Shown here: positions 12,391 through 50,031 of the stretch, one piece after another | Numbering within the stretch: position 1 is the stretch's first letter | Layout of the letters: each line of letters opens with the position of its first letter | Assembly: GCA_963971575.1 (NCBI GenBank) | Contig: OZ020625.1 | Span: forward strand, 21,380,474 to 21,444,473 | Source of the DNA: Liopterus haemorrhoidalis | Lineage: Eukaryota > Arthropoda > Insecta > Coleoptera > Dytiscidae | DNA: 64,000 nucleotides | Reading direction: 5' to 3' | Notes under the pieces: generated by a model | The model's input: the letters and a program-made list of their open reading frames with translations, nothing else | Database searches by the model: none | What the model was told of the DNA's origin: nothing | Position numbers and translations under genes: made by a program

Positions 12391-12410
12391 CGAGGGTCAA
12401 TCAAATATAA

Positions 12411-14050: not shown

Positions 14051-15335
14051 CCAGGTCTACAAGTATGAAATGCGGATTTTTTTCAAACTTGCCGCGCAAA
14101 CAGAGTCTATAGTTCAAAGTTTCAACACATATGGCGTTTTGTTAAGTTATCATTAAGTGTCAAATGCGTATAGGTTATAATTTGAAAAGTGATCATATAG
14201 TTTTGTTTTACTGTGTTAAAAATGTCAAATTTTGTGCCAAATAAAGAGCATTCGCGGCCAATACTACTGTTTTGTTTTCATTTGAAAAAAACTGCTGCTG
14301 AATCATACCGACTGCTTCGAGAAGCTTATGGTGAATATGCTCCATCGCAAGATAAGTGTGAACGATGGTTTCGGCGTTTCAAAAGTGGTGACTTTGATCT
14401 TACAGACAAAGAACATAGAAAACCTCCAAAAAAATATGAAGATACAAAATTGGAAACATTGCTACAGGAAGACGATAGTCAATCACAAAAACAACTAGCA
14501 GAGCAGTTAGGCGTTAGTCAACAAGCTGTTTCCAATCGCCTACGAGAGATGGGTAAGATCCAGAAAGTCGGCAGATGGGTTCCACATGCATTGAATGAGA
14601 GGCAGATGGAAAAACACAAAAACATTTGTGTAATTTTGCTTGCACGGTACAAAAGAAAGTCTTTTTTGCATCGTATCATTACTGGCGATGAAAAATGGAT
14701 TTATTTTGAAAATCCCAAACGCAAAAAATCATGGGTGAACCCAGGCTTACCATCCACATCAACTGCAAGACCGAATCGCTTTGGCAAAAAGACAATGCTC
14801 TGTACTTGGTGGACCCAAAAGGGTGTGGTCTATTATGAATTGTTAAAACCTGGTGAACAGTTAATACCCAACGCTACCAACAACAACTGATCGAAATGAA
14901 CCATTCGCTGCTCATAAAACGACCAGAATACGAAAGGAGACTGCATAAGGTAATCTTTCTTTACGATAACGTTCCATCACATAAGGCAAAAGCAGTTTGC
15001 AACACATTGGAGGCCCTCAAGTGAGAAGTGCTACCCCATGCCGCTTACTCACCAGACTTGGCCCCTTCAGATTACCACTTGTTCGCATCGATGGGTCACG
15101 CACTTACCGAGCAGCACTTTTGTTTATATGAAAATGTGAAAGAATGGCTAGATGAATGGTTTGCGGGGAAAGGGGAAGAGTTCTACTGGCGAGGTATTCA
15201 CAAATTGCCTGAAAGATGGGAAAAATGTATATCTTCTAATGGAGCATACTTTGAATAAATAAACTTTTACTGTGCTTTTGAATTTAATGTGTTTTATTTT
15301 TTAAAAAAATCCGCATTTCATACTTGTAGACCTGG
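14051..15335 (+). mobile_element. Mos1-like mariner, copy A1
   Basis: Perfect ends CCAGGTCTACAAGTATGAAA and complement, TA on both sides (14049-14050, 15336-15337), 1285 bp, the size and layout of Mos1. Identical position and defects in unit B (45604-46888). Two more copies in opposite orientation occur at 24101-25382 and 56159-57444. Confidence 0.95.
14222..15258 (+). pseudogene. Mos1-like (mauritiana group) transposase, frameshifted
   Basis: ATG at 14222 starts MSNFVPNKEHSRPILLF, as in Mos1. HTH motifs are in residues about 10-110, with the typical WVPHALNERQ and first-aspartate motif ITGDEKWIYF. A one-base loss near 14852 (compare the minus-strand copies) shifts the frame, and a TGA replaces the conserved Trp at 15021-15023 before LPHAAYSPDLAPSDYHLF, the third-aspartate motif. 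Remaining C-terminus to 15258 is intact. Not functional; same lesions in unit B. Confidence 0.92.
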
Positions 15336-15683
15336 TAGGTCTAACAGGAAAATTATTTTAATCAACCCTTTCCACTCCAAGCCTTTTTTCTTTTTATTCC
15401 ACCAGCTCCACGCCAAAACTGCGTTTTTTTAACTTTTAGTTTTTTTTTTTTTATTTTGTAAATAAAATTGATTTTTTCTTATCTGATAACCTTTATTTTA
15501 CGAGTTATTACATGATACTACATTATAATTCTGAATTCTAATCTTTATAATTCCTTCTGGTATGGTATTTTTCAAAACAAATCCCGGGGTGAAGCGAAGG
15601 TTTTGCCTCACATGTTTTGCAAAAATAGAATGTTTCTTTTCTACCACATTTTATTTATTAAAAAAGAAGAAAAAAAAGAAGTA

Positions 15684-17001
15684 CAAGGTGTCTCAAAAGA
15701 AATTTTATATTTAGTGGATCGATTAAAAGAAAAGTAAGCCGTATATAGAAAAAATGTTTATTAATTGTTAAAATACACTTTTTGGGGATTTATTTCTTAA
15801 AAATAATATCGTCTAAATGTAGACCCTCGCGTTCTCGGCACTCATTTAATCGAACAGTAAAATTACCTATGACGTCTCGGTAGGTGGACTCAGGGATGGC
15901 TGCCATTTCGTGACGGATATTTTCTTTCAAATGCGCCAGTGAAGTCGGTTTATTGGCGTAAACTTTAGATTTAAGATAACCCCATAGGAAAAAGTCCATA
16001 GGGGTTAAATCTGGACTGCGTGGAGGCCAATTTATGTCACCTCTCCGGGAGATCAATTTGCCTGAGAAAATTTCACGAACACGTGGCAGAGACATATTGG
16101 ACGTGTGTGAAGTTGCTCCATCCTGTTGGAACCATGTTCTTTGGTTATAGCTAGGAAAGTTTTGCAGTTCAGGTACCAAGAAGTTGTCTAACAAGGAGAT
16201 GTTAGCCACATAACGCTCTGAATTCACTGTAACTGCACGCCCCCTTTCGTCTTCAAAAAAGTAAGGGCCGATAATTCCTCGCGCCGACATCGCAGCCCAT
16301 ACGGTCACTTTAGGCGAATGTAGGGGTTTCTGATGTTTGCGTTTCGAATTCGTTGCACTCCAGTAGCGGCAGTTCTGCTTATTTACGTGGCCATTAAGAT
16401 GAAAATGAGCTTCATCCGAGAACAAAATGTTGGTAAACGTTGAAAATCGCTCAATCACCTGATTTACGAAATTAAGCCTCTGACTGGCATCTTGGGGCTT
16501 TAATTCTTGCACCAATTGAATTTTGTAGGGGTGCAGCTTTAGGTATTTGTGCATAATGCGATGTAATGATGATCTATGCACAATTAAAGCACTTGCGCGC
16601 TTCCGAATTGAAAGGTTCGGGTCGTCACGAACAGACTGATTAACATTCTCCACGTTTTCTACCGTTCTTGATGACCTAGGTCGCCCGGATTTTGATTTAT
16701 TCAGAGTTGTACCAGCCTCTTCAAACTTTTTAACCCAATGTCGAATGAGAGGAATGCTTGGCGCATCATTTAAGTGGCGAAAACCTCGAATACTGCAGAA
16801 TTTTCTACGCGCTACAGTCGCCGAATCACAGTTTTTGTAAAACTCTCGCACGCATAACGCGCGGTCTGCTCCCGAGAAACGCTCCATAGCGACTGGATTC
16901 CCAAGAGCCAGGCTACCGATTGACATAACCCCTGCGCCCCTCGGATACGTTGCGTTCACGCAGTAAGCTAAATAAATATAAAATTTCTTTTGAGACACCT
17001 T
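15684..17001 (-). mobile_element. DD41D mariner, copy with open transposase (unit A)
   Basis: Ends CAAGGTGTCTCAAAAGAAAT and its complement (last base changed), TA duplications at 15682-15683 and 17002-17003, 1318 bp. It sits inside the piggyBac-like element. Same insertion in unit B (47238-48547), so it predates the duplication. Confidence 0.93.
15790..16926 (-). CDS. DD41D (rosa-type) mariner transposase, intact ORF
   Basis: 378 aa from ATG at 16926 (MSIGSLALGN); an earlier in-frame start in the terminal repeat has no ATG. N-terminal HTH region about 15-140 with SKSGRPRSSRTVENV. Catalytic residues D171 (NILFSDEAHFHLNG), D269 (WFQQDGATSHT) and D311 (SPDLTPMDFFLWG); 41 residues separate the last two, the DD41D spacing described for rosa-like elements. 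The protein should cut at the 30 bp inverted ends and insert at TA. A 9-base in-frame insertion distinguishes it from the unit B copy (ANISLLDNF against EMLDNF). All three aspartates being present, activity is possible. Confidence 0.9.
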   Translation of the reverse strand: MSIGSLALGNPVAMERFSGADRALCVREFYKNCDSATVARRKFCSIRGFRHLNDAPSIPLIRHWVKKFEEAGTTLNKSKSGRPRSSRTVENVENVNQSVRDDPNLSIRKRASALIVHRSSLHRIMHKYLKLHPYKIQLVQELKPQDASQRLNFVNQVIERFSTFTNILFSDEAHFHLNGHVNKQNCRYWSATNSKRKHQKPLHSPKVTVWAAMSARGIIGPYFFEDERGRAVTVNSERYVANISLLDNFLVPELQNFPSYNQRTWFQQDGATSHTSNMSLPRVREIFSGKLISRRGDINWPPRSPDLTPMDFFLWGYLKSKVYANKPTSLAHLKENIRHEMAAIPESTYRDVIGNFTVRLNECREREGLHLDDIIFKK

Positions 17002-17013
17002 TTATTACACTAT

Positions 17014-17077
17014 GTCGAGTGTCACTCGACATTGGAGCTGGTGGAACAAAATCAATGTCGAGTGACACTCGACATTG
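17014..17077. repeat. Twin 19 bp palindromes TGTCGAGTG.CACTCGACA
   Basis: Two near-perfect palindromes about 43 bp apart, one with central T and one with central A. They lie just inside the right end of the piggyBac-like element, where such elements carry subterminal repeats that may bind transposase. Unit B (48556 onward) has one C-to-T change in the second. Confidence 0.75.
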
Positions 17078-17093
17078 GAGTGGAAAGGGTTAA

Positions 17094-17420
17094 ACCATAC
17101 ATTATGGGAATAGTAGAATTGTTTGTTACTAATGAATTATATGTTTTTTTGTCTATAGTGTTTTGGTTAAATAATTTTTTTATGATTTTATTATTTTTGT
17201 TTTGCGTTTTTGTAGTTACATCAATGTTTATGGGAATATAGGTAGTATTTCTTGTCTTCAAGTAATTTAACCATTTTTTCTTTGTAATCTTCGATATTAA
17301 TTATAACTGTTACATTAGTTTTGTCTGATTTAGTGACTAAAATTTCTTTGTTATTTTTTAAAAATAATTTAGTTTCATTATATGAGTGTAACATATCTTT
17401 GTCAAAGGTATTAAAATTTT
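17094..17420 (-). pseudogene. Penelope-like RT fragment
   Basis: Minus strand, reading from 17420 down, encodes KEILVTKSDKTNVTVII and DYKEKMVKLLEDKKYY, then after a frame change NQNTIDKKTYNSLV and IPIMYGL. These match the pre-RT and first RT motifs of Penelope-like elements (compare ILCKADKGNTITILEKTDY and LYGLPKLHKP in the intact copies at 34588-39294). It ends where the piggyBac-like end begins. Truncated and not functional. Confidence 0.7.
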
Positions 17421-17610
17421 GAGGTTTATTGATAAAATTAGTTATAATATTAAAAATAAAATAGACAGTAATAGAAGTAATAATTCAATAGTAGAACATG
17501 CTAATAATTTAAAACATGAATTTGATTTTCAAAATGCTAAAATTCTAAACAACGAAAAAATTTTAACAAAACGACTGCTTCTAGAAATGATTTATATAAA
17601 AAAAAGATAA
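17421..17610 (+). pseudogene. Penelope-like GIY-YIG C-terminal fragment
   Basis: Plus-strand frame encodes NSIVEHANNLKHEFDFQNAKIL and KRLLLEMIYI, which align with the end of the GIY-YIG nuclease domain of Penelope-like proteins (SNIAEHMISNNHNLSVNDFK). It abuts the RT fragment above in opposite orientation. In unit B a family X copy interrupts it at 49149. Confidence 0.6.
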
Positions 17611-17661
17611 AAACAACATAAATACGAAAACTGACAGAAAATTTAAGTGAAATATATTGTA

Positions 17662-18069
17662 AAGTCTGTTCCAAACGGTTAGGCGGAACTAGATTTTGCA
17701 ATTTAGTTACTTTCATCGTTTAAATCATGCTTTTCGGCCGTTTTGTTTAAGCTTTGTAAATCATACTTGCAACAAATATTTTTTGGTTAAGGTTAATATC
17801 ATTTTAAAATGTCATTTTCTTTATATTTTGATTTTTTGTGTCATTCTTAATACAAATATCCCATTTATTTATGTTTTTGTCATTAAAATATGTAAGAAAA
17901 TTAATTTAAGTTTGACATATGTCATTCGTTTCCATGGTTTCATTGTTGGAATTTTAAATTTTGACATTCCAACGTGAAAAATGAAATAACCCAAGCAAGG
18001 TCCCTTTTCGTGACAACTTAAAAGAACGAAATTCCCATTTAGTTCCGCCTAACCGTTTGAAACAGACTG
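17662..18069. mobile_element. TA-flanked MITE, family M2 (AGTCTGTTCCAAACGGTTAG ends)
   Basis: Ends AAGTCTGTTCCAAACGGT and complement of CAGTCTGTTTCAAACGGT, about 30 bp including GGCGGAACTA; TA at 17660-17661 and 18070-18071; 408 bp. Other copies: 32628-33033, 33659-34065, 50141-50539 and partial inside the hAT element at 20340-20720. Non-coding. Confidence 0.88.
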
Positions 18070-18343
18070 TAATTTAATAAAAAACAATTAATAACTCCAT
18101 CTATTGATCTTGTAACTGACTTCATTTGCAAATTCATTATGTCTTTAAAAAATATTTAATATTCATTTAGTCGACATGCACACTTAATTGTCCAAACAAG
18201 TAGGAAGATTTTAAAAAAATGTCCGTTTAATTGAAATATATTCAATGTGTATTTTAACTATTTATCTATTTACTTTTTTAACATTTTATCAACAATTTTT
18301 ATATACCTTTTATATTTGCAAGTAAGTTTATTTTATATATATA

Positions 18344-18650
18344 CAGGGTGTTTGTTTGAAACGGGGCACCCCGAAAATCTCCTTTATTTGTAAAGATTAG
18401 AAATTAATAGATTAGAAATTAGCTTTGTAAAGCTAATTTAATGTACTTTTAGGAAAAAAATATAAAATTATCGATTCCCTATGCTAGATCAAAAGTTGAC
18501 ATCATTTCCGGTGAAACCGGAAGTGCATCAGAATTCTTATAGTAACCCTTACATGGGCCCTTTTGTCTAGTTTAACTTTTGTTCTGAAGATTTTTTGTAT
18601 CTTTACAAATAAAGAAGATTTTCGGGGTGCCCCGTTTCAAATAAACACCC
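18344..18650. mobile_element. TA-flanked MITE, family M3 (CAGGGTGTTTGTTTGAAAC ends)
   Basis: Inverted ends of about 50 bp beginning CAGGGTGTTTGTTTGAAAC, followed by GGGGCACCCCGAAAATC, flanked by TA and a TA-dinucleotide run. 307 bp, non-coding. The right half also occurs at 10690-11018. In unit B (50814-50955) its right half is lost at the TA repeat. Between M2 and M3 (18070-18343) nothing else is seen. Confidence 0.8.
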
Positions 18651-18731
18651 TATATATATATATATATCTAAAAGCCTTCTACCATAGTATGGTGTAGGCT
18701 GTATTTCTTTGTTTTCTCCTTCTTTTCTATA

Positions 18732-19025
18732 TTATGGCAGTACGGGTTCATGTACGAATTTTGCCCAGTCTTTTTTGTTTCTTGTCATTCTTTTAGCTTC
18801 TATAATCGTTTTTCCTCTTTTCTCTATTATCCCTTTTACTGTTCTGTCCCATGTATTTCTTGGTCTTTCTATTCTTTGCTTTCTGTACGTTCTGGTCTCC
18901 CAGATCTGCTTCACGTGTCTTGTGTCTTTCAGTCTTTGTATGTGTCCCCACCAGGCCAGTTGTCTGTTTTCTATGAATTGTTCAATCGGTTCGATATCGA
19001 GTTCTTTTCTTATATCTGTACCAAA
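18732..19025 (-). pseudogene. LINE ORF2 C-terminal fragment (GRPRNTW type)
   Basis: Minus strand: a frame with ELDIEPIEQFIENRQLAWW, GHIQRLKDTRHVKQIW, then RPRNTWDRTVKGIIEKRGK and ends KFVHEPVLP. RGRPRNTW followed by W near the end is the usual C-terminus of many insect LINE ORF2 proteins. The 3' flank ends in a TA run at 18650-18668. Only the last ~95 residues remain. Unit B: 51044-51337. Confidence 0.75.
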
Positions 19026-19369
19026 AAATTAATACTTAACCAAACTATTTAATACGGTCAAAAAAAATTATTTATACAATTTGTAGAATTAGGTTTTAAT
19101 TAGGCCTTAAATTATATAATAGTATAATTACATTAATGAGACGTGCAGCGTTCAGCTAATTGATATTTATGCAAAATCTCGTAAAATATATTAGTCGTAA
19201 AATCTGCTACTGATTATATTTGTATATCTTACAGCAATGTCATGCTCACTAACTACAATGAGAGTTAAAGCATAAATATTTTAAAATTGTTTAAAGATAT
19301 ATAATTGATATTAAAATATCAGTACACTCACAATTTATTTCTGAGAGGTTTCAGATCTAGAAAGTGGTC
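19026..19369. other. Upstream region of the secreted-protein gene
   Basis: AT-rich, no repeat ends recognised, almost identical in unit B (51338-51681). It must hold the promoter and 5'UTR of the exon that follows if that exon is first. No TATA box can be told from the AT-rich background. Confidence 0.35.
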
Positions 19370-19712
19370 ATGTATATATTAACGATTTTGATTTTTTCTT
19401 CGAGTATATATTTTCAGGGACTCTCCTTGGAACTTATCCCTGGAGAGGAATCACAAACCATATTATCAGCTGTCAGAAAATATATATGGAGAGAAATAAA
19501 TAAAAATAGTAATTTAAAAAACGGTGAGACCCATTCGAAAAGAATAAAAGGCTATTATAGTGAACCGGATGATGAAATAAATCAGAACAATTTAAAGAAG
19601 TACCATGATACTTTGAATGAATTAAATGACTTCTACGATAAAGTATACAGATATAAATCACAGAGAAGAAAGAAAAGACACCACAAACACAAAACACACC
19701 ACCATAAAAAGG
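19370..19712 (+). CDS. Secreted-protein gene, exon 1 (unit A)
   Basis: ATG at 19370 begins MYILTILIFSSSIYFQGLS, a typical cleavable signal peptide of about 19 residues, so the product should enter the secretory pathway. Then LELIPGEESQTILSAVRKYI and a hydrophilic stretch; the last third is strongly basic with a His-rich run (RRKKRHHKHKTHHHKK). The exon ends in phase 1 at GG|GTAAAT (donor at 19713). It joins in frame to the exon at 26652-26968 (G|GT makes Gly), giving 219 aa. The last 45-50 codons differ completely from the unit B exon 51682-51931, although the signal peptide is the same. Family not recognised. Confidence 0.6.
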
Positions 19713-19738
19713 GTAAATATGCGACAAAACTCTTTTTG

Positions 19739-19772
19739 ACGATTTTTTATGTATTCTTACATAAAAAATCGT
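19739..19772. repeat. Intronic hairpin just after the donor
   Basis: ACGATTTTTTATGTA, loop TTCT, and the exact complement: a 15 bp perfect stem 26 bp downstream of the exon 1 donor. Conserved in unit B at about 51958-51991. An RNA structure could influence donor use; function unproven. Confidence 0.55.
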
Positions 19773-19854
19773 TACAAACGGTTAAATTACGTAAAAAACG
19801 GCCACAAAGTATACATAAAATAGCACCGTTCTCATACAAAAAATTGATGTGAAG

Positions 19855-21034
19855 TAGGTATGGGAAAAAAACATCGATGTATCGAAAACATCGATGTTTG
19901 TTTTTAAAACATCGATGTTTTTACCATCGATGGTCAGCTGGCGATAGTATCGATAAAACATCGATGTCTACTACCGATGTCGATGTTTAAACTTTGAAAT
20001 TCAGAAACTACCGCTAGAGGCGCTGGAATCTTAAAAATTTAATTTTTATTAAATTACTACACAAAATATAAGCGCCATCTATTGTGATATAACAATACTA
20101 ATAGTGTTAGTTTTTATTCTTCTTAGCAGTTAGCAGAATACGAAAAAATAAGAAGAAACTTCTAATTTTTGCAAACAATGCGAACGACCAACGACGCCAA
20201 CACACTTTTTCTTTTTGAGTCTTGTTGACACTTTCCCAGTTGTTATTCCTCCAATCCCTGGATTTTTGTAAGTTGTCATTAGCTATTTTTTTATATATTG
20301 AAGTTGGCTTTTCCTGAACAAAATGATCAAAAGCTTCAATTAATCGGTAAAAGTAACTAGAATTGAAAATCTAGTTCCGCCTAAAACAAAGGAACAGACT
20401 TTATTTCAACTTAAAAAAGTATAAAAATAATTGTGTATGACAGTGTTATTTTTATGTTAAATAATATAAAATTAACATTAAGATTACTATATTAGTATTG
20501 TAATAAAATCCAATATTTCATTTTAGAAATGCAAAAATAGTAAGGTCTGTTCCTTTGGTTTAGGCGGAACTAGATTTTCAATTCTAGTTACTTTTACCGA
20601 TTGATTGAAGCTTTTAGTCATTTTGTTCAGGAAAAGCCAACTTCAATATATAAAAAAATATCTAATGACAAAATGAAAATTGCGGTTAGTTCCGCCTTAT
20701 CGTTTGGAATAGACTGTAGGTACAAATTAGTATTATTATATTGGGTATAATAATATTAATGTGAAATTAATTACTATTAAAAAGGAATATTTCTATTTCA
20801 AAATCTAATAAATGCTTTTTGTGTATTAAGTGTTACTTTCTTCGTATTTTATCTTTACATTATTAAATAAAACCTATATAATATAAATAAATAGCTTTTT
20901 TTAATATTAATAAAACATCGATGTTTCCGATACATCGATGTTTTTCCTTCGATGTTTTTTCAACATCGATAGTAAGGCGCCGATGTTAACATCGATGTTA
21001 AACATCAATGTTTTGCCTTCGATGTACAACCCTA
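19855..21034. mobile_element. hAT non-autonomous element with exact 8 bp duplication
   Basis: Ends TAGGTATGGGAAAAAAACAT and complement of TAGGGTTGTACATCGAAGG; 8 bp duplication ATGTGAAG at 19847-19854 and 21035-21042. Unit B has the empty site with one ATGTGAAG (52066-52073), so insertion postdates the A/B split. Both ends are packed with CATCGATG repeats. Inside, 20340-20720 holds two M2-like MITE ends in inverted orientation. 1180 bp, non-coding. Confidence 0.93.
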
Positions 21035-21042
21035 ATGTGAAG

Positions 21043-21096
21043 TGAGTGTTCTAAACGACGATAAAGTATACAGATATAAAGCAAAGAGAGCAATGG
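21043..21096 (+). CDS. Possible 54 bp cassette exon of the secreted-protein gene
   Basis: The segment encodes SVLNDDKVYRYKAKRAM, which resembles the end of exon 1 (LNDFYDKVYRYKSQRRKK), so it looks like a duplicated exon piece. It has AAG before it and GG|GTAATT after it, and both boundaries are phase 1, so it could be skipped or included without frame change. The acceptor lacks a good pyrimidine tract, and the downstream sequence merges with an RT fragment (GNYNLTFYADDT), so the donor may be fortuitous. Same in unit B at 52074-52127. Confidence 0.3.
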
Positions 21097-21107
21097 GTAA
21101 TTATAAC

Positions 21108-21921
21108 TAGAGATGGGAATTTCGGCTCAGTTTGCGGAACCGGATCAGTGGAGGTCGTTCAGTTTGTTGAGCCGGTTCATTGATCCGGCTCAGGGATCTG
21201 GTTAAGTAAACATGTTTCCGAGACACAGGTCGGTCGTTAGTTCGGAGGTAGAACGTCGTTTAGAGCCGGCTCTTGCTTAGAGCCGGTTCTTGCAATATAT
21301 GAACTGTAAACATGATCCCGAGACACAGGTCGGTCGGTTGTTCGGTCGTAGGTAGAACGTCGCTTAGAGCCGGTTCTTGCAATATATGAACTGTAAACAT
21401 GATCCCGAGACACAGGTCAGTCAGTTGTCGGTCGTTCGCTCGTAGGTAGAACGTCGCGTAGCCCCGGTTCTTATCTAACATTTTTGAAACAATCAATTCA
21501 CTTTATGTAGCTACTGTATTTTAAACCAGTTGTGTTAAGTTTATCGCAATGTTTATTGCCCTTATAAATCGGACATCTGGGATTTGGGCAATATTTTTAA
21601 TATTTTTATATAGTATGGTTGTTAGAAAATACAGACTAGTAAGCCTATTAGTTTCAAATAAACTGCCCTACAAATTGATGACAAAATACACTTTATGATA
21701 ATACATTACAAGCCGAGTTCTCGCGAAGTTCATCATGACATCGATCCAGATCCGGATCACTCCGGTCACTGCTCACATCGCCCGACCAATCGTATCCTTG
21801 AAACTTGAAACTATACAGTGAGCCGTGAGCCGGCTCATTTCAATTTGGTGAACCGTGTCACTTCGGTCAGTGTACTGAGCCGGCTCAGTGAGCCGGTTCG
21901 TTCATGAACGACCCATCTCTA
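21108..21921. mobile_element. hAT-type MITE with TAGAGATGGG ends
   Basis: Ends TAGAGATGGGAATTTC and complement of TAGAGATGGGTCGTTC; exact 8 bp duplication ATTATAAC (21100-21107, 21922-21929). 814 bp with many GAGCCGG/CCGGCTC blocks. It is inserted in a LINE RT fragment. Unit B copy (52139-52862) is 90 bp shorter, having one internal tandem unit less. Non-coding. Confidence 0.93.
21270..21470. repeat. ~87 bp tandem repeat inside the hAT MITE
   Basis: Unit containing TTCTTGCAATATATGAACTG, CATGATCCCGAGACACAGG and GGTAGAACGTCGC occurs about two and a half times here and one unit fewer in unit B. It is the only large length difference within this MITE between units. Confidence 0.8.
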
Positions 21922-21929
21922 ATTATAAC

Positions 21930-22192
21930 CTCACGTTCTATGCCGATGACACTGTTTTATATATTTCTGGAGCTAATTGGCAGCATGTAATTGATAGGAC
22001 TTCTAAACAAATGACATTAATTAAAGATTGGTTAGATAATAATTATCTTACCTTAAATTATAGCAAAACTAATTTTATAACCTTTTCTTGTAATAAAAAA
22101 TTATACCCGAATATACTGAATATTATAATACATGAAAAAATATGCACGTTGCAAAACTGTAAATGTAACATCTCTATTAACAGAAAGGAATA
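21930..22192 (+). pseudogene. LINE reverse-transcriptase fragment (YADD), part 1
   Basis: Read across the hAT MITE, the frame is GNYNLTFYADDTVLYISG, then LIKDWLDNNYLTLNYSKTNF. FYADD is the RT active-site motif of non-LTR retrotransposons, and the LTLNYSKT segment is the usual next block. It is cut at 22193 by a DNA transposon; part 2 begins at 23564. 5' end not recognised. In unit B a family X copy (53045-54116) also splits it. Confidence 0.8.
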
Positions 22193-23561
22193 TACAGTGA
22201 ATTTATTTTTGAATGCAACATATAATATGTCATTACCATGAATACAGTTTTTGACAGCAATATAAATCGTGTTCATTTTCATTTGCAACATAGAAAAAAC
22301 CATATTTACTAGCAAAATAAAAATATTTTGTTGAAAATACAAATAAAAAAAAATTATAATAAATAAATAACTAATAAAAACTTATAATAAATGTTCAAAA
22401 GTTTCTCCGTTTACTTGCATACAAAATGTTAAGCGATCATAAAAATGATTCAAAACATTCAGCAATTGCTCTTGAGGTATATTGTTGGATGCTTGAACAA
22501 TTTTGTTTTGTAGTTCAGCAACATTTCTAAGTTCTCCATTATATACTTTGGCCTTTAAATATCCCCAATAAAAAAAATCATTGGGTGCCAAATCCGGAGA
22601 TCTCGCTGGCCAATTCATCGACTCTCCTCTTCCAATCCAGCTATTTGGGAAAGTTCTATGTAAATATTCTTTAACTATTCTAGAATAATGGACTTGTGCG
22701 CCGTCATGTAGAAACAATACTTGTACATTAATATTCAGGTTTCGCAACGCAGCTAATATTTGGTTTTGCAAAAGGGCTAGATATTTTGCGGCATTAAGGT
22801 TACCGTCAATAAAAAAAGGCCCTATAATATTGGTTCCTATTATCCCTGCCCAAACATTTAATTTTTGCGGCCTTTGAGTTCAGGAGGAATGAAACAAATG
22901 TAAATTTTCTCGACTCCAGTACCTAAAATTTTGTCTGTGCACTTCACCATTTAGAGTAAACGTTGCTTCATCAGTAAATAAAATTCTTACAAAAAACATT
23001 TCAAAACAAAAATCCATACGTACTGCTGCGTCCCTTTCTAACAATTCTTGATGATTTTGAAATTTGTATGATCGAACCTTTTCTTTTTTTTAAGAAGTTA
23101 AAAACAGATCCAATACTGACACCAACGGTTTGTGCAATTGATCTTAAAGTATTTTGATTGTTTTCTTCCACTTGTAATAATATTTCCAACTGCTTCTCTT
23201 CTGTAAGCACGTGGGATGTTGTTCTTTTTTTATTATGTTTTGACTTAAGACATCCTTCGCAATGAAATTTATTAACTAGTCTTGAAATTGTAGAGGGATT
23301 TGGTATTGGCCGATCTGGATAAGTTGCACTAAATACAGCAGAAACTTCTCTTAAACTCATTTGGGAGTTATACCAAGTTACCATCATTATTTTTTCTTCA
23401 TCTGTATACATGTTGATTAATTTTTAAATCAGCAATGAGCAAAAGTATATACACTAATTGTCTATGTTGCAAATGAAAATGAACACGATTTATATTGCTG
23501 TCAAAAATTGTATCCATGGTAATGACATAGTACATTTGCATTAAAAAATATATTCACTGTA
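22193..23561 (-). mobile_element. Second DD41D-type element with inverted ends over 100 bp
   Basis: Inverted ends beginning TACAGTGAAT and extending more than 100 bp (they include GACAGCAATATAAATCGTG and TTCATTTTCATTTGCAACAT), with TA on each side (22191-22192, 23562-23563). 1369 bp. It splits the LINE RT fragment. Unit B: 54214-55570. Such long ends are unusual for mariner. Confidence 0.85.
22382..23411 (-). pseudogene. DD41D-type transposase, second family, broken
   Basis: From ATG at 23411: MYTDEEKIMMVTWYN, HTH blocks (NPSTISRLVNKFHCEG, LRSIAQTVGVSIGSVFNFL), a frame change near 23085, the first-aspartate block [18 protein letters not shown], an in-frame stop near 22880, then VLFLHDGAQVHYS and SPDLAPNDFFYWGYLK. 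The last two aspartates are 41 residues apart, as in the family at 15790, but overall similarity to that family is low. Inactive in both units. Confidence 0.82.
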
Positions 23562-23563
23562 TA

Positions 23564-23660
23564 AGATATTTGGGTATTTATATTGATTGCCATTTAAAAC
23601 AGAGAGTCGAACCGGAACCGAACCGTGTTAAAAACCACAGTTTTTAACTTCGAGTTGACT
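23564..23660 (+). pseudogene. LINE reverse-transcriptase fragment, part 2
   Basis: AGATATTTGGGTATTTATAT encodes RYLGIYI, then DCHLK, the block that follows the YADD region in LINE RTs. It continues the fragment ending at 22192, showing that the DNA transposon inserted into a LINE. It decays after about 30 codons. Confidence 0.6.
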
Positions 23661-23790
23661 ACGTGGTGATTTTATTTTATCTGATTGACTGACTGAAGAT
23701 GTGCATACTACCCATGTACGAAACGTTTCATATTTTATAAATTGACAAGAACATTTTAATAAACTGACGAATAAAAGAACACCTGCGTTT

Positions 23791-23824
<34 letters not shown>

Positions 23825-24100
23825 TAGGTTATTACCCGTCAATAATGACGGATTTATAATATAAAAATTTCAATTGTTTGTTGTGTATTTGGTTTTATTT
23901 TTTATTTTTTAACGTATCTTAATTTCATCGCCGGTCAGCGAATCACGGGACAGGATATCACCCGTTAGCCAATCACGGGAGAGGGTGTCACCTGTCAGCC
24001 AATCAAGAGACAGGGTGTCCCCAGTTAGCCAATCATGAGAACCTTAGGAAAAATTTACGTCATAATGTTACCGACACTACATACAGACACTTGCTAATTA
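23660..24100. repeat. TA run and 33 bp tandem repeats, non-coding
   Basis: A TA microsatellite (23793-23820) precedes CTAGGTTATTACCCGTCA, an end-like motif after TA. At 23932-24035 about three copies of a 33 bp unit with AGCCAATCACGGGA-type core follow. A related ~100 bp stretch recurs at 25945-26046. No gene seen. Unit B has a longer, interrupted TA run (55805-55880). Confidence 0.65.
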
Positions 24101-25382
24101 CCAGGTCTACAAGTATGAAATGCGGTTTTTTTTTTAAATAAAACACATTAAACTCAAACGAACAGTAAAAGTTTATTTATTCAAAGTATGCTCCATTAGA
24201 AGTTATACATTTTTCCCATCTTTCAGGCAATTTGTGAATACCTCGCCAGTAGAACTCTTCCCCTTTCCCCGCAAACCATTCATCTAGCCATTCTTTCACA
24301 TTTTCATATGAACAAAAGTGCTGCTCGGCAAGTGCGTGACCCATCGATGCGAACAAGTGGTAATCTGAAGGGGCCAAGTCTGGTGAGTAAGCGGCATGGG
24401 GTAGCACTTCCCACTTGAGTGCCTTCAATGTGTTGCAAACTGCTTTTGCCTTATGTGATGGAGCGTTATCGTGAAGAAAGATTACCTTGTGCTGTCTTCT
24501 TTCGTATTCTGGTCTTTTAAGAGCAGCGAATGGTTCAATTAGATCAGTTGTTGTTGGTAGCGTTGGGTATTAACTGTTTCACTAGGTTTTAACAATTCAT
24601 AATAGACCACACCTTTTTGGTCCCACCTAGTACAGAGCATTGTCTTTTTGCCAAAGCGATTCGGTCTTGCAGTTGATGTGGATGGTGAGCCAGGGTTCAC
24701 CCATGATTTTTTGCGTTTGGGATTTTCAAAATAAATCCATTTTTCATCGCCAGTAATGATACGATGCAAAAAAGTCTTTCTTTTGTATCGTGCAAGCAAA
24801 ATGTTACAAATGTTTTTGCGTTTTTCCATCTGCCTCTCATTCAATGCATGTGGAACCCATCTGCCGACTTTCTGGATCTTACCCATCTCTCGTAGGCGAT
24901 TGGAAACAGCTTGTTGACTAACACCTAACTGCTCTGCTAGTTGTTTTTGTGATTGAATATCGTCTTCCTGTAGCAATGTTTCCAATTTTGTATCTTCATA
25001 TCTTTTTGGAGGTTTTCCATGTTCTTTGTCTGTAAGATCAAAGTCACCACTTTTGAAACGCCGAAACCATCGTTCACACGTATCTTGCGATGGATCATTT
25101 TCACCAAAAGCTTCTCGAAGCAGTCGATATGATTCAGCAGCAGTTTTTTTCAAATGAAAATAAAACAGTAGTACTGTCCGGGAATGCTCTTTATTTGGCA
25201 CAAAATTTGACATTTTTAACAAAATAAAACAAAACTATATGATCACTTTTCAAATTATAACCTATACGCATTTGACACTTAATGATAACTTAACAAAACG
25301 CCACATGTGTTGAAACTTTGAACTATACAATCTGTGTGCGCGGCAAGTTTGAAAAAAATCCGTATTTCATACTTAGACCTGG
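24101..25382 (-). mobile_element. Mos1-like mariner, copy A2
   Basis: CCAGGTCTACAAGTATGAAA at 24101; right end with a 2 bp deletion in the inverted repeat (ACTTAGACC). TA flanks. 1282 bp, opposite orientation to 14051-15335, so the two form inverted copies about 9 kb apart. Unit B: 56159-57444. Confidence 0.93.
24177..25213 (-). pseudogene. Mos1-like transposase with one frameshift
   Basis: ATG at 25213 starts MSNFVPNKEHSRTVLLF; the frame is open through the HTH domain and ITGDEKWIYF until about 24530, where a small deletion (compare 56575-56585) shifts it. The C-terminal part (24177-24428) keeps LPHAAYSPDLAPSDYHLF with its third aspartate and ends with ITSNGAYFE. Apart from the shift it is nearly complete against the 345 aa of Mos1. 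Confidence 0.9.
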
Positions 25383-25485
25383 TATATAGTTAGATTATTT
25401 ATTCATGAACTTTCTAAGATGGAAAAACGATTCATTTTTACCCAGTACATTACATTTATATTGTTAAAACTAAAAATAATTTGAG

Positions 25486-25950
25486 ATGTTAATTTATGCC
25501 TACGAAACCCAAGACATTTATGTATGTAATTATATTCGTAGATTCTTAGAGAATAAATCTGCAAAATATTGTTCATATCGGTCAAAGGATGAGTATCTAA
25601 AGTTTCTTTTTATGCTTACGAAATCCTACATATTTTTATATATAATTATATTCGTAGATTCTCAGAAAATAAATCTGCAAAATATTGTTCATATCGGTTA
25701 AAGGATATAGGCGTGTCTAGGGTTTCTCTTTTATGCCTAGAGTTTCTCTTTTATGCCTACGAAACCCTAAACATTTCTAGATATAATTATATTCGCAGAT
25801 TCTTAGAGAATAAATTTGCAAAATATTATTCATATCGGTTAAAGGATATAGGGGTGTCTGAGTCCATTTATGCCTACGAAACCCTAAACATTTCTATATT
25901 TAATTATATTCGTAGATTCCTAGAGAATAAATCTGCAAAATACCTGTCAA
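25486..25950. repeat. Minisatellite of about 115-140 bp, four units
   Basis: Units start TTTATGCCTACGAAACCC (25493, 25608, 25749, 25866) and contain TAATTATATTCGTAGATTC and GAGAATAAATCTGCAAAATA. Open frames through it (YIRRFLENKSAKY repeats) are a by-product of the repeat. Present in unit B at 57548-57990 with the same unit number. Confidence 0.85.
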
Positions 25951-26046
25951 TCAGGAGACCTCAAGAGTCCCCAGTAAGCCAATCACGAGAACCTTAGGAA
26001 AAAATAACGTCACAATGTTACCCAGATCACATACATACACTTGCTA

Positions 26047-26344
26047 TAAGCTGTTCACTTTTGTAAGAACACACAAGATCAGGTTATTTTGGTTACTTTT
26101 ATGGTGTGGTACTGACTTTAAATGTCAATTAAAAATATTCCTTACGCTGTAAAAACGACTTTAGGTTGATAAGGTTATGATCATTATAATTAAGATATCA
26201 TTTTTCATTGTGACATATGTCAAATGGATCGACATTTTAAAAAAGTGCCATTTTTTAATACCAACATGACATACAGCTTCAAAGGTGCAAACTATTGAAA
26301 ACAAAATTCCCTCTTGGTTTGTTCTTACAAAAATGAACTGCTTA
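26047..26344. mobile_element. M1 MITE, complete, absent from unit B
   Basis: Ends TAAGCTGTTCACTTTTG and complement of TAAGCAGTTCATTTTTG; TA at 26045-26046 and 26345-26346. Unit B has the uninterrupted TTGCTAATTATATATG at 58086, so the TA duplication and element limits are proven. 298 bp, non-coding. It lies in the intron of the secreted-protein gene. Confidence 0.95.
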
Positions 26345-26651
26345 TAATTATATATGTACGATTAGGAAATATTGAAAGGAAAATATTTAAAAAAAACATG
26401 ATAACTGAAATATGCAAAATATGCAAAGTATGCAAAACAAAACTACTGTCAAAATAGAACAATTTTTTTGATTCGAAGATATTTGAAAATCATTTGAGTG
26501 CACATCAAGCTTCAGAATATGCAAACGCATATTTTCCTAGTTGTCTTCACTTGCCTGCGGCTCGTGTTGAGAAACTTTCCACTCACACAAAAATATGATA
26601 TTTTACGGAATATTATATAAATTACTACTTTTTCACTAATTTTCTTTTTAG
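26345..26651. other. 3' part of the intron of the secreted-protein gene
   Basis: No TE ends recognised. Ends in a pyrimidine-rich acceptor TTTTCACTAATTTTCTTTTTAG. Nearly identical to unit B (58085-58391) except for a 5 bp indel near 26570, in contrast with the exon that follows. Confidence 0.5.
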
Positions 26652-26968
26652 GTTATGGTAAAAGGGTTAGTTTTCGTGTACCTGTGAAGAAAAAGTATAA
26701 TATGGCAGTTACATTGTTTAACACGTTCCTACCGTTTCCATTTCTAACTGATGTGATAGGACAGACTGCACTAAATATAGGAAGCGTAATAGGAACACAA
26801 CTGAAAGGAATGGCCGATTTAGTATGCTGCGGTAGTCGTAGTGTTGTAAATCAGGCTTCCAAAGAACTTGATTCTATATTGACAGATATGAGCCGAATGC
26901 TATCATTGTTAAGATCCAGAAAAAAACCCAAGCTCAAACAAATATCTGATACCAGATCCAGAAACTGA
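26652..26968 (+). CDS. Secreted-protein gene, terminal exon (unit A)
   Basis: Follows an AG acceptor and begins with GT, completing the Gly codon opened by exon 1 (phase 1). 105 codons including stop: GYGKRVSFRVPVKKKYNMAV, LFNTFLPFPFLTDVIGQTA, VCCGSRSVVNQ, then a basic tail RSRKKPKLKQISDTRSRN. A moderately hydrophobic first half and two adjacent cysteines are visible. Compared with the unit B exon, nearly every difference changes an amino acid, while the flanks are identical. Family not recognised; role as an effector-like secreted protein is inference from the signal peptide and evolution pattern. Confidence 0.6.
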
Positions 26969-27062
26969 AACACGACGGAAACAATGAAGAAAATAATGGA
27001 ACTGAGGCAAACGAAAATGAAAATAGTAATTTTAATTTCTCCTTCTCTTCTTGGGAATTATC

Positions 27063-28073
27063 ACTCAGCTTGGCCTGTATCCTCACTCATAAAGTCCATT
27101 GGGATAGACTGTACTAGTTTTCTACAAACTTCTGCCGGTATATTATTCCACTCTTCTTGAAGTTTCGTTTTAAAATCATTTTTATTAGAAAATTTGTTTT
27201 TATCCGAACTTTTAATTCTCACCATAAATTTTCAATTGGATTGAGATCAGGCGATTGTGGCGGTGTTTTGAGTAATTTTGGTGAATTGTATAACAGCCAA
27301 TCCTTTACAATAAGCGCAGTATGTTTGGGATCGTCATCTTGTTAGAAATAATAAACTGGTGGCGTATCTAATTTTGCTGCAGTAGCCGTAAGATTATTTT
27401 TCAAGATGTTTAGATATTTCCATTTATCCATGATGCCTTATATAAATTCTTAATTACCTGGGCCGTTTGAGCTCATAGCACCCCACAACATAACTGATCC
27501 GCCTCCGTGTTTTACTGTCGGAACAGTATTAATTTTTTTAAATTCTGTATTGGGCTTCCGCCAAACAATTTGTCTGCCGTCCGACCCAAAAAATTTAATT
27601 TTCGTCTCGTCAGAAAAAATAACTTTATTCCAGAAGCTAATTGGTTTGTTTACATACATTTTTGCAAATTCTAAGCGTTTCTTTTTATTCGTTTTTGAAA
27701 TCAATGGTTTCTTGCGTGCAATTCGACCATTGTAGTTATTTTTTCGGAGTACTCAGCGGACTGTTTCTACTGAAATTTGTTTATTTAATCTTTGTGACAA
27801 TTCTGACGTTAACTGGGGTACACTAATTTTAGGATCTTGCTTGATTTTTCGCAAAATAAATCTTTCATCCACAGTTGATAACAATTGTTTTCTGCCTCTG
27901 CCCGTTTTGTTTTGGATTGTACCTTCATATTTAAATTTATTTATTATTTTTTGAATTGTGGTATGTCTTCGGTTTACTATATCACCTATTTCACGCATTG
28001 TATGACCCCGGGCGTATAATTTAACTATTAGTTTTCGTGTAAATTCGTCAGTCTGTTTACGTTTATTTTCCAT
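27063..28073 (-). pseudogene. Tc1-type transposase (DD34E), decayed, unit A
   Basis: ATG at 28073: MENKRKQTDEFTRKLIVKLY, two HTH motifs (MREIGDIVNRRHTTIQKII; VPQLTSELSQRLN), a TGA at about 27752-27754 where unit B has CGA, then VIFSDETKIKFFGSDG with the first aspartate and HGGGSVMLWGAMSSNG. Beyond a degraded stretch come [12 protein letters not shown] and [14 protein letters not shown], whose D and E are 34 residues apart. Typical Tc1 length is about 340 aa. Inverted ends were not identified. Confidence 0.85.
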
Positions 28074-28486
28074 TATAATAAAAACAAAATCACTGTACTT
28101 GAATGTGGCCTAATGCAAACTAAACTAATGAGAAAAACATCTGTTGGAAGATAAAACCTATGCAATATAGTTTCAGGAAAAGACAAGACTTAAATCAAAC
28201 GAAATTAACTAGTACGCTCAATCTTGTGTCAAAAAAAAAATATTTTTTTAGTTTTCCTTAAATTTTTTTTTTTATAATATCTGTCTAATTTTTTAATACG
28301 AAACTAAGAGGAAAATTTCATTTTTTATGCTGTCTATTTAAAATATCATCTTCGGGTGGTACTGCTGAAATGGCACCTTTCAAAACATTTGACAATTCAT
28401 ATTTGACATTAAATTATATGTGAATTTATTTTTTTAATTGAAAAGTATTTTTATACAACCAAAATAAGAACATAACATCAGAAAAT

Positions 28487-28807
28487 ATGCATAACAGACA
28501 ACAATTAGATAAATATACAAAAAAACACATATATAAGGCTTATGGAAAACTTTTAGAAAAAAATGGAACAAAACTAAAAAGAAGCGAAATTATAGACCTT
28601 GTGGCAGATATTTTTTCAGTAAATTTTGGTGTCCTTTTTGTTGTGAAATATAAAATAATTTACCCATTTCAATTTCTTTAGATTTCTGAAGGAGAAGTAA
28701 GAAAAATTGGGAGTCTAAATTTGTTTCCTTATTATTCCCTCTTCACATGTATAATATTATATTATATTAAAATATCTATACCAATTATATTATTATTGTA
28801 TATTAAA
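28487..28807 (+). CDS. Small two-exon candidate gene, unrecognised (unit A)
   Basis: ATG at 28487: MHNRQQLDKYTKKHIYKAYG, KLLEKNGTKLKRSEIIDLVADIFS. A GTAAAT donor (28619) and TTTCAATTTCTTTAG acceptor (28680) define a 62 bp intron of normal insect size; exon 2 continues in frame ISEGEVRKIGSLNLFPYYSL and, if not spliced again, runs to a TGA at about 28822 through a hydrophobic AT-rich tail. A further possible donor GTAAGA at 28695 is destroyed in unit B. Mostly basic, lysine-rich, no signal peptide. Nearly unchanged between units (one replacement, V to L). No family recognised. Confidence 0.4.
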
Positions 28808-28829
28808 TACAAAATAAAATGATAAATTA

Positions 28830-29960
28830 TTATTATATGATATGTATTTTTGTTTTTTATATTTTATCACGATATTTCATTTGACATGTCAATCACAATT
28901 TTTACATGTCAATTTAGTCACAAATTATAAAACAAGGAAGATAGCGGACTCCCACGTTACGGCTTTGGACAGCGATAGTTGCGACATTCGTGGTTGTAAT
29001 ATGAACTAGGATTAGATAGTATGCAACCCGCAGTGCACACAAATATATTTTTATATTTTAAATTGCTATTGGCATCTGACACTACCGATAGAGGCGCTAC
29101 TGCATTCACATCATGGCTGACTTTGGTAGGATATTTTTGACAGGTTCAATGGTAAATTCATGTGATATTTATTGAAACACACGGGAACACACTCTAAAAT
29201 GGTCTTTAACTGTCTTTCCACTTCTAAGAACATATTCCCATGCTTGTCACAAACTCGACTATCCTACAAACGTCAGTTTCTCAAAATCTCACTAGAGGCG
29301 CTTCAGTTATTGTCAGTTGACAATGATCATTAATTTTCTACCAAAATTGAAAAATATAATGTAATTTTGGTAGAAAATTAAAGATTGTCTTGAACCGAAA
29401 ATTATGATTAATTTATTTACAACTCTCATAATTAATTTCCTAAAATTAAAATTAATTACAATTGTTAAAAGTTAATACTTCAGTAAGCATTAAGTTTTAT
29501 TATTTTATTTGCAAGCAAGCATATGAAATAAATAAACAAGTATTTATTTTTTACTTTTATATTTACTTTTATTGTACATATTAAATTTAGTCTGTGCCAT
29601 TTTTATTATTACACTATTTATATTTCTTTTGCATTTTCCATTTAAAATATTATTAATTACACTACACCATTTGAAAATAAAAAATGTGGTGCTAATATTT
29701 AAAATTTCTTATAAAATTCATCACTGTCACAATCACAATTGCCGCAAATTGCCGATAATGAAGTGTTCTCAAAATGTTGGTTAAAAAAAAACGCTTTTAG
29801 CGCTATCGGTGGATGGAATATAACTTAAAACCGTTTCAAGGCCGTGTATATGAGTTTCATACCCCTGAATTTAGTAATAACCTATGATGAAACTTAACTA
29901 TACTTTTAAAAGCCAGATTTACAAGTTCACATGATTCTACAAAAGTCTATTTACACCACA
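28830..29960. other. Non-coding stretch with hairpin; no gene recognised
   Basis: Contains two blocks with a TAGAGGCGCT motif (29089, 29294) and a strong hairpin at 29330-29381. The 70-residue frame at 29572 has no support. Nearly identical in unit B (60460-61600), where an extra ~35 bp is present near 61370. No TE ends found. Confidence 0.45.
29330..29381. repeat. Perfect 19 bp stem hairpin
   Basis: TTAATTTTCTACCAAAATT, 14 nt spacer, and its exact complement. Unchanged in unit B (about 60960-61011). Could be a fused pair of short TE ends or a structured RNA. Confidence 0.8.
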
Positions 29961-30135
29961 ACAGTCACTAAAGTAACCAGATCTATGGTCTATTTCAAAG
30001 TAGAAAAATGTGTGTAAGAAGATAGGAGCTGTTTGTCCTTGCTTCGGATTGGTTTAGATCGTCATCCCTATTACACTGTAAAAATATTGTTTTTAGTCCA
30101 AGTTGACAGATGTTCAGTGTCGTACATTGGAAATA

Positions 30136-31815
30136 TAAGCTGTTCACTTTTGTAAGAACAAACTAAGAGGTAATTTTGTTTTCAATAGTTTGCACCTTTG
30201 AAGCTGTATATCATGTTGGTATTAAAAAATGTCACTTTTTTAAAATGTCGATCCATTTGACATATGTAATAATGAAAAATGATATTTTTATTATAATGAT
30301 CATAACCTTATCAACCTAAAGTCGGTTTTACAGTGTAAGGAATATTTTTAATTGACATTTAAAGTCAGTAACACACCATAAAAGTAACCAAAATAACCAG
30401 ATCTAGGGTCTATTTCAAAGTAGAAAAATGTGTGTAAGAAGATAGGAGCTGTTTGTCCTTGCTTCGGATTGGTTTAGATCGTCATCCCTATTACACTGTA
30501 AAAATATTGTTTTTAGTCCAAGTTGACAGATGTTCAGTGTCGTACATTGGAAATATATATTATTTATATTATTTAATTTTTCTCATATATTTTGTTATTA
30601 TTTACATATTTAGACTTTTATTTATATTCTTGGCGTAGATTTTATGGAGAAAATTCTCCATGTAATTTGTTTTTACATAGTTATACAATTTTAGGTTATC
30701 TGACATAAAAATATTTTTCTCCACGACCACTATAGAATTTACCAATTCTAAAACCGATTTTGACTACAGAAAGTTAATATTCTAACACAAGAGTTGGAAT
30801 GTTATTCTAAAGCACTTATCTCCTTATGCATTTTGCGTGTATTTCATTCCATCACTTGTTACGGAATAACTATTCCATACTTGTTGTCTTTTGTTTTAGT
30901 AGGGTTACATTAAGATATATGCAACGTTTACATTAAATAAATGCAACATAACTTCCTAACCTAAAATAGTGGCCGATGTGCGGCAAATTAAATTAAAATT
31001 AAACAAATAATGATTAAAAAATATAGTTTAATTAATTGATTAATTTGTTATGTATATAAATTATGTGTTAAGATAAAATGTTTGTTAAAATAATTATTTG
31101 TTATTTTTTTTTCCTTTCTGGTAGTCGTGGAGAAAGTAGGGTCTGTGACTCGGTTGGAAGAGAAAATTCGATGCTCGTGGTTCCTCACGCTCGCCTGCGG
31201 CTCGCGCTCGGAATTTTCCACTCGCATCGAATTTTCTCATTCCAACCTTGTTACAGAATATACTATTTGACACTTGACATTTAACAGATCAAGAGAGAGG
31301 ACTAATGTGAGGCCAAAAGACAGCCCAGCTGATTGTGCCCAAAGAAGAAGTTATTGATATAATTTTTAGACCTTCATATATACATATATTTTTAATTTTT
31401 ATTTACAATAATTATTTAAATAAGAAACTTTAGCTCTGAAGATATATTGTTTGTTTTATTGATTTGTTTCAACTCTTTTAGCCAAATCTCTCTTTTTATA
31501 TATAGTACATAATTTTTAAAATTAATATTTTTTTAACTTTTTCAAATTTCACATTAAACTGAATTTATTTCGTATAAATAACGTAAGTGTATTATCTGCC
31601 TTGTTTATTTCAATATCTTATTAACCTTTTTTATATTAAAAAAAAAAAAACACTTTCTAACCCAGTTGCTACGCCCATGCCCTAGTTGTAACTTATTTTA
31701 AATTTACCGCTATACTGTATTTGATCAGTGTAAATCGTACTCGGTTCGCAGCGCTATCTACTTTTTTCTACTTTGAAATAGACCATAGTGTGTTCTTACA
31801 AAAGTGAACAGCTTA
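30136..31815. mobile_element. M1-type element carrying an inner M4 copy
   Basis: Ends TAAGCTGTTCACTTTTG (30136) and exact complement (to 31815), TA duplications (30134-30135, 31816-31817). The empty target, GGAAATATATATTATTTATA, is present at 30550 within the inner M4 copy. M4 (30406-31785) sits inside this element, so the two families are nested in each other. Unit B: 61807-62933. Confidence 0.75.
30406..31785. mobile_element. TIR element M4, inner copy
   Basis: Inverted ends GGTCTATTTCAAAGTAGAA (30406) and complement ending at 31785, TA flanked. About 1.38 kb, non-coding. A segment at about 30716-31285, bordered by TTCTCCACGACCAC and its partial complement GTAGTCGTGGAGAA at 31121, is absent from unit B. 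Confidence 0.65.
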
Positions 31816-32627
31816 TATATATTATTTATATTATTTAATTTTTCTCATATATTTTGTTATTATTTACATATTTAGGGCCGGTTTCTGGAACATTTTTTTA
31901 TTGACACGATATCGCCTCAATAGTTATCGATACAATAAACCTTATCGAGTCGATAACTTTTTGACGGTTTCTCGATACTCATCTGACATGTTTATTGTAT
32001 CCAATAACTTAAAGTCACTGGATTATACAAAGTACCGCAACGGCGGCCATGCTGGGGTTAAAAATGTCGCCAACACAAATGATGTTCAGTGATTCCAACA
32101 TTACAAAAATAAGAAACTAGTTTTTATTTTAAACATTGTAATCACGATTTTTTTAATCAAAGATGCACTATAACAAAATTAAATTAAAATTAAATTAAAT
32201 TAAATATTCAACCCGCTGACAAAGAAGGTTATTAAATGAGAGCGAGAGAGGGAGATGTGACAGCGCAGACGTAAACTTAAGAACGTAAAAATTGCTGCTT
32301 TAGTTTGCTTAACAGGGGAACCAATGTTGCCAATCAAACCCTGGGGTCTGTCGGCTTCTTCAAAGGCTTGCGGTACTTTGTGTAATCCAGTGACTTTACA
32401 ATAACTATTGTAGCGATATGTATGCATTTTAATTCACACAGCCAAAATATTTACAAAATCTCTTGTCATTTATGTGATTAATTGTTTACAAATGACAATA
32501 GTCAATGTCAGTTTCAAAAATAATTTACAAAAATATATATTTTGAACAATTAGTTTAAAAATAGATTGTTAAAAAATGGCAGAAAAAATGTGTAAAAATT
32601 TCACATGGAAAATTTGCAAAAGACATA

Positions 32628-33033: not shown

Positions 33034-33062
33034 TATTTTTTTTTATTTTCAAAATTTCCTCA

Positions 33063-49985: not shown

Positions 49986-50031
<46 letters not shown>

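What the first reader, a model, noticed from the sequence alone, without database searches (positions are those of the whole stretch)
19370..26968. Hypervariable secreted-protein gene in duplicated units (with 51682-58708)
Two exons with matching phase-1 boundaries encode a signal peptide and a basic mature protein in each unit. Signal-peptide part, intron ends and 3' flank are nearly identical between units. Yet in the 95 aligned codons of the last exon (from KKKYN) I count 24 replacements and one silent change, and the first 12 residues plus the end of exon 1 are unrelated. Conserved signal and introns with a divergent mature region is the pattern described for gall-midge salivary effectors and other arms-race secreted proteins. 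Alternatives: conversion from a paralogue, or balanced haplotypes.
Basis: partly seen in the sequence, partly recalled or inferred. Interest (0 to 1): 0.88.

Follow-up and report, generated by a model that had tools for sequence, protein, structure and literature searches.

The report
Secreted-protein gene with remodelled twin copy
Two neighbouring copies of a gene predicted to make a small secreted protein are about 99% identical in their noncoding DNA but differ at 15% of the bases of a predicted last exon, nearly always changing an amino acid, which is likely the mark of selection for protein novelty; splicing, tissue and function are untested.

Summary
In two tandem units (about 25 kb) aligned noncoding DNA differs at 193 of 20,153 bases (0.96%), exon 2 at 48 of 317 (15.1%). 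The change starts at the first exon base; 0 of 295 aligned intron bases before and 0 of 300 bases after it differ. Pairwise omega is 17 (p = 0.0014). The own-genome search (1.02 Gb) gave six exon-1 and four exon-2 places. Each exon-2 place lies downstream of an exon-1 copy on the same strand, and those four exon-1 copies are the four that share one donor segment, so a two-exon gene is likely. New: copy A and a C25 copy are 94% identical in exon 2; B is 86-87% identical to both. B is the remodelled copy, and no donor for it was found. Likely a fast-evolving orphan secreted protein, like Hessian fly SSSGPs in pattern, not in sequence. Host, tissue and any gall link are not shown. Import of a divergent block, perhaps from a spliced message, stays open.

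The parts
9519..34213 (+). Duplicated unit A (aligned part)
   Evidence: Self-BLAST, 98-99.8% for most pieces; right end from the flank
41147..64000 (+). Duplicated unit B; runs 919 bases past the window
19298..19323 (+). TATA-like (19298) and TCAGT initiator-like (19319) pair of copy A; identical in B, only partly kept in the other four copies
   Evidence: motif names recalled
19370..19712 (+). Exon 1 of copy A: predicted signal peptide, conserved head, family-typical basic tail; phase 1
51682..51931 (+). Exon 1 of copy B: same head, its own short tail; phase 1
19713..26651 (+). Predicted intron of A, with several transposable elements
51932..58391 (+). Predicted intron of B
19713..19837 (+). 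Intron-start segment with a palindrome; found with four of six exon-1 copies and nowhere else in the 344 kb searched; open in frame to a TGA at 19850
21043..21105 (+). Orphan piece that resembles an exon-1 tail and ends G|GT, inside the intron; identical in B at 52074-52136
26652..26968 (+). Exon 2 of copy A
58392..58708 (+). Exon 2 of copy B, the outlier

Best explanation
This is a small family of genes predicted to encode secreted basic proteins from two exons, and in one of two tandem copies (B) the mature coding part was likely rewritten by strong selection for amino-acid change after the duplication. Shown by sequence: a unit of about 25 kb exists twice on one stretch and its noncoding DNA differs by about 1%; exon 2 and the end of exon 1 differ far more, and the changes in exon 2 nearly all replace residues. 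Shown by genome search: the exons recur together; copy A still resembles its C25 relative, B does not. Inferred: splicing of 19712 to 26652 (likely), secretion, and a target that rewards novelty (a host or enemy molecule, or a mating partner). Inferred mechanism: duplication made a spare copy; the first 58 residues (with the predicted signal peptide) and the last 8 stayed, while residues between them changed under positive selection, mostly in B.
For: 48 of 317 differences in exon 2 against 193 of 20,153 in noncoding DNA, with 0 of 295 and 0 of 300 in the adjoining bases. 34 replaced and 1 silent of 104 codons; P(at most 1 silent of 35) = 0.0005 under the noncoding spectrum; omega 17.0, LRT p = 0.0014 for 104 codons, and omega 5.5, p = 0.036 for the 93 codons from KKKYN. 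Substitution types do not differ from noncoding ones (ts:tv 18:30 against 97:96, p = 0.15), so no special mutator is seen. No paralogue near B: with A or with B as query the exon-2 search gives the same 4 places; B is 87% to C25, 86% to A, 74% to C1; none of the other five exon-1 copies has the B tail. At the 4 aligned exon-1 differences A agrees with L002, L003 and L004, so B is derived at 4 of 4. Edges at exon boundaries are what selection on codons gives.
Against: The rate asked for is extreme: 43 of 237 replacement sites (18%) in the time of about 1% noncoding change, 19-fold. Silent sites are perhaps raised (3 of 75 by path counting, p = 0.036; 1 of 75 by whole codons, p = 0.5), which would fit an older origin of the B block. 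From rounded identities the exon-2 branches are about 3.5% (A), 10.5% (B), 2.5% (C25) (by hand), so A would be sped up too, or B is an older lineage. In the 148 bases after the donor B is nearer C25 (3 differences) than A (6, two of them at the edge of an insert in A). The B tail of exon 1 is shorter by 93 nt and hard to derive by point changes. Exon 1 over the family shows no strong selection (pN/pS 0.61-2.38 over 15 pairs). The omega test rests on one pair. All six exon-1 copies are also open as single-exon frames of 129-160 codons.
Confidence: 0.5

Rival explanations
1. The B block was imported: gene conversion replaced the end of exon 1 and exon 2 of B with those of an older, divergent family member or allele; the donor itself had diverged under selection. 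If the template was a spliced message (cDNA), the exon-exact edges follow.
For: In exon 2 A groups with C25 (94%) and B stands apart (86-87%), although noncoding DNA puts A with B (99%) and C25 at 95.7% of A upstream of exon 1. Silent differences A-B are about 4% by path counting, like A-C25 upstream. The changed block is one stretch in message order, from exon-1 base 175 to 26940. Of the 3 early intron differences two are changes on the A side and at the third B agrees with L002 and A with L003, so B's intron start looks native.
Against: No donor in the assembly by searches with A exon 1, A exon 2 and B exon 2 (counts are lower bounds by the tool's statement). A DNA tract would have to end by chance near exon edges three times. 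A cDNA tract usually removes the intron (recalled).
Confidence: 0.3
2. Wrong gene model: exon 1 is a one-exon gene ending at the TGA at 19850, and exon 2 belongs to another transcript.
For: All six exon-1 copies are open for 129-160 codons without splicing; in the four copies that share the segment after the donor, 8 of 9 variable codons before that stop are replacements (its tenth row lies after the stop and is left out); L004 has no phase-1 donor at the aligned place and 5 stops before it.
Against: Exon 2 has no start codon at its front (first Met at residue 17 in A, 6 in B) and a good acceptor (13 of 1,504 AG sites on both strands score at least as well, these two included). All 4 exon-2 places lie downstream of an exon-1 copy on the same strand (about 6.9, 6.5, 39 and 55 kb), and these 4 exon-1 copies are the 4 that carry the shared phase-1 G|GTAAATAT donor segment.
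Confidence: 0.15
3. Divergent alleles kept by balancing selection recombined into the two units; flanks were homogenised by recombination.
For: A replacement-rich exon with plain flanks resembles MHC-like loci (recalled).
Against: Noncoding sites next to exon 2 show 0 of 595 differences (P = 0.003 even at the 0.96% rate); alleles this old should carry linked change.
Confidence: 0.08
4. Pseudogene drift, sequencing error or an assembly artefact.
For: The intron holds several transposable elements and a 200-N gap lies just before unit A.
Against: 46 random changes leave the frame open in 16-17% of trials, and of those 0.2-0.3% have at most 1 silent codon; no indel in exon 2 between A and B; frame-specific pattern; the C25 copy resembles A.
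Confidence: 0.02

Closest known systems
Hessian fly small secreted salivary gland protein (SSSGP) genes, Chen et al. 2010, PMC2955719 (read: abstract, sections 6 and 7, part 1 of 3 of section 4)
   Same: Conserved promoter, signal-peptide part, intron and 3' region with a diversified mature part; pairs with dN/dS up to 18.8; clustered copies; groups without detectable relatives in other species
   Different: No sequence relation found; there seven genes within 15 kb, here one pair of 25-kb units with a 6.5-7 kb intron holding transposable elements, and two further copies that span about 39 and 55 kb; here one copy is the outlier; expression unknown
Pea aphid KQY/KHI cassette effectors, PMC7495047 (abstract read)
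   Same: Shared signal-peptide coding part with divergent remainder
   Different: Those genes are built of miniature exons (KQY1a: 37 exons, 33 of 15 bp or smaller); two exons here
Aphid bicycle genes, PMC9168663 (12 passages read)
   Same: Predicted secretion, fast evolution, no likeness to known proteins
   Different: No CYC motif here (one CC); their many small exons are recalled, here two exons
Conotoxin precursors, PMC3862624 (abstract read)
   Same: Conserved introns, changes concentrated in the mature-peptide exon
   Different: No cysteine framework: 2 Cys in exon 2, none in exon 1

Membership tests
Hessian fly SSSGP-type genes (pattern) | Mature coding part diverges while signal part, intron and 3' region are conserved | tested here: met
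   A against B; but A against C25 in exon 2 (94%) is near the upstream noncoding level (95.7%)
Hessian fly SSSGP-type genes (pattern) | dN/dS above 1 in the mature part | tested here: met
   Exon 2, A against B: omega 17, p = 0.0014
Hessian fly SSSGP-type genes (family) | Sequence relation to a described family | tested here: not met
   No match at E <= 10 to the exon-1 frame or the exon-2 frame of A among 5.8 billion proteins, within that tool's word and length limits; no Pfam family above cut-off for A and B frames; best PDB match E 0.23 (exon 2 of A only)
Hessian fly SSSGP-type genes (family) | Salivary-gland expression in a gall midge | not testable with these tools
   No RNA data; organism unnamed
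Aphid bicycle genes | CYC motifs in the protein | tested here: not met
   No CYC in the exon peptides of A or B
Aphid KQY/KHI cassette genes | Many miniature exons | tested here: not met
   Predicted exons of 343 and 317 nt in A; no transcript seen
Conotoxin precursors | Cysteine framework in the mature exon | tested here: not met
   Two adjacent Cys only
Transposable element | Exons recur as many dispersed repeat copies | tested here: not met
   6 and 4 places in 1.02 Gb (lower bounds by the tool's own statement; no TE library searched)

The most novel reading that the evidence does not exclude
Copy B was remodelled by message-templated gene conversion: a spliced transcript of a diverged relative, copied into DNA, overwrote the mature coding block across two exons and left the 6.5-kb intron untouched. 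This would be a way to renew an arms-race protein in one step with exon-exact edges.
Probability: 0.12. Interest if true: 0.85.

Novelty: new member of a known kind. Interest (0 to 1): 0.62.

Why it matters
The two units give a built-in clock: about 1% noncoding change beside 18% change at replacement sites, with a third copy to tell which unit changed. That makes it testable whether such 'super-diversified' secreted proteins change in place by selection or by import of blocks; the homogenising mechanism is called not fully understood for the gall-midge genes (PMC2955719, abstract and section 7). No described protein family matched in the searches named here.

Tried and rejected
Protein homologues of the exon-1 and exon-2 frames of A: none at E <= 10 (32 and 5 candidates). 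Viral contigs: none. Structure of exon 2 from two sequences: three helices, pLDDT 67, pTM 0.46; Foldseek best E 1.1, so no fold claim. Helix periodicity of changed residues: shuffle P 0.32-0.52, none. A nearby open piece after exon 1 in L003, L004, L006 was tested against exon 2: P 0.04-0.65 over six tests, not accepted. Exon 2 within about 20 kb of the four other exon-1 copies: one weak hit, E 0.59; later found at about 39 and 55 kb for two of the four, not for L004 and L006. Another copy within 100 kb of the window on either side: only a weak match of exon 1 (26%, E 0.004-0.02), not accepted. Equal net charge of A and B (+21 each, summed by hand plus the junction residue) was noticed and not tested.

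Full report
What was checked. The two units are real. Unit A (9519-34213) and unit B (41147 to 919 bases past the window) align at about 99% over most of their length. The window has one run of N (9319-9518) and 100 kb on either side has none, so A and B lie on one stretch without N. Each carries an exon with a predicted signal peptide (by eye; no predictor was on hand) and, 6.5-6.9 kb on, a second open stretch with an acceptor. Both exon-1 ends are phase 1.

How unusual it is. Aligned noncoding DNA differs at 193 of 20,153 bases, exon 2 at 48 of 317 (Fisher p = 3e-39); 2,961 noncoding positions did not align and were left out. By part: 0.71% before exon 1, 1.65% in the intron, 0.71% after exon 2. 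The last 295 aligned intron bases and the first 300 bases after the stop have no substitution; the intron end has two small indels. The other five frames have 6-8 silent codons and 2-18 codons that are a stop in one or both copies. GY94 omega is 17.0 (p = 0.0014), or 5.5 (p = 0.036) without the first 11 codons. The substitution spectrum does not differ from the noncoding one (p = 0.15). I read this as selection for change in a coding frame, not drift or a mutator.

The family. The own-genome search placed the window at C14:21380474-21444473 of a 1.02-Gb assembly and gave six exon-1 places: A, B (96%), one on C25 (95%) and three on C1 (84-91%). All six start with ATG and are open for 129-160 codons. 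Five have a phase-1 G|GTAA donor; L004 does not at the aligned place. Exon-2 searches with A and with B gave the same four places: A, B, C25 and C1. On C25 exon 2 lies about 39 kb downstream of exon 1, on C1 about 55 kb downstream of the L003 exon 1, each on the same strand. The four exon-1 copies with an exon 2 are the four that carry the donor segment GTAAATAT; for L004 and L006 neither was found, though a more distant exon 2 could be missed. I take this as good, indirect support for the splice. No transcript was seen.

Which copy changed. In exon 2, A and C25 are 94% identical, B is 86% to A and 87% to C25 (310 of 317 bases aligned), and C1 is 74% to A and to B over a shorter part. Upstream of exon 1, A and C25 are 95.7% identical over 349 bases. 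So A has moved at about the noncoding pace since C25, and B is the outlier. The tail of exon 1 is of one kind in five of six copies; B alone has the short one. At the 4 aligned exon-1 differences the base of A is found in L002, L003 and L004. Against a simple picture: of the three differences just after the donor two are A-side changes and one is unresolved, and over the 148 bases after the donor B is nearer C25 (3 differences) than A (6, two at the edge of an insert in A).

How it likely works. A tandem duplication, perhaps between copies of a non-LTR element that sit at both unit starts (inferred), made a spare gene. The predicted signal peptide and the first 58 residues stayed the same, so delivery was likely kept. 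The end of exon 1 and much of exon 2 changed, so what the protein touches likely changed. In place this needs about 19 times the noncoding rate at replacement sites. Import of a block would need less, and the tree conflict and perhaps raised silent change fit it; but no donor was found in the assembly, and the edges match exon ends. I keep selection in place first (0.5), import second (0.3).

What is not shown. Secretion, tissue, target, host. The gall-midge idea has no support beyond the pattern, and the genome is large for a gall midge as far as I recall. No protein relative of copy A was found among 5.8 billion sequences at the sensitivity and length limits of that search, and no Pfam family passes its cut-off. 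Papers: PMC2955719 abstract, sections 6 and 7 and part 1 of section 4; PMC7495047 and PMC3862624 abstracts; PMC9168663 twelve passages; others only as search listings. I make no claim that this gene is absent from print: those five searches were about the pattern.

Noticed in passing
window 34588-36903 (-) and 36871-39294 (+): Two inverted, open Penelope-like ORFs of 771 and 807 codons, nearly identical by eye (Pfam RVT_1 and GIY-YIG in the first), in the non-duplicated stretch between the units.
   Followed up: partly
window 21043-21105 and 52074-52136: An orphan exon-1-tail-like piece ending G|GT inside the intron of both units, 97% over 34 bases to the C25 exon-1 tail; a possible spare or lost exon.
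   Followed up: partly
window 19728-19783: A palindrome just after the donor, kept in four gene copies and open in frame.
   Followed up: partly
window 19856-21031: Insert in unit A only, with a duplicated flank; a 96.5% copy lies about 37 kb past the window, so likely a transposable element younger than the duplication.
   Followed up: partly
L003, L004, L006 (C1): In L006 a stretch of 63 bases after exon 1 looks like a short intron; an open piece of 24-31 codons follows a like acceptor in L003, L004 and L006: these copies may use another last exon.
   Followed up: partly
window 24300-25299: The mariner copy in the intron differs 2-3% between units, more than most of its surroundings; possible exchange with other mariner copies.
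   Followed up: no
window 8930 and 40621: Element copies preceded by ATT repeats sit at the start of both units and may have mediated the duplication.
   Followed up: no
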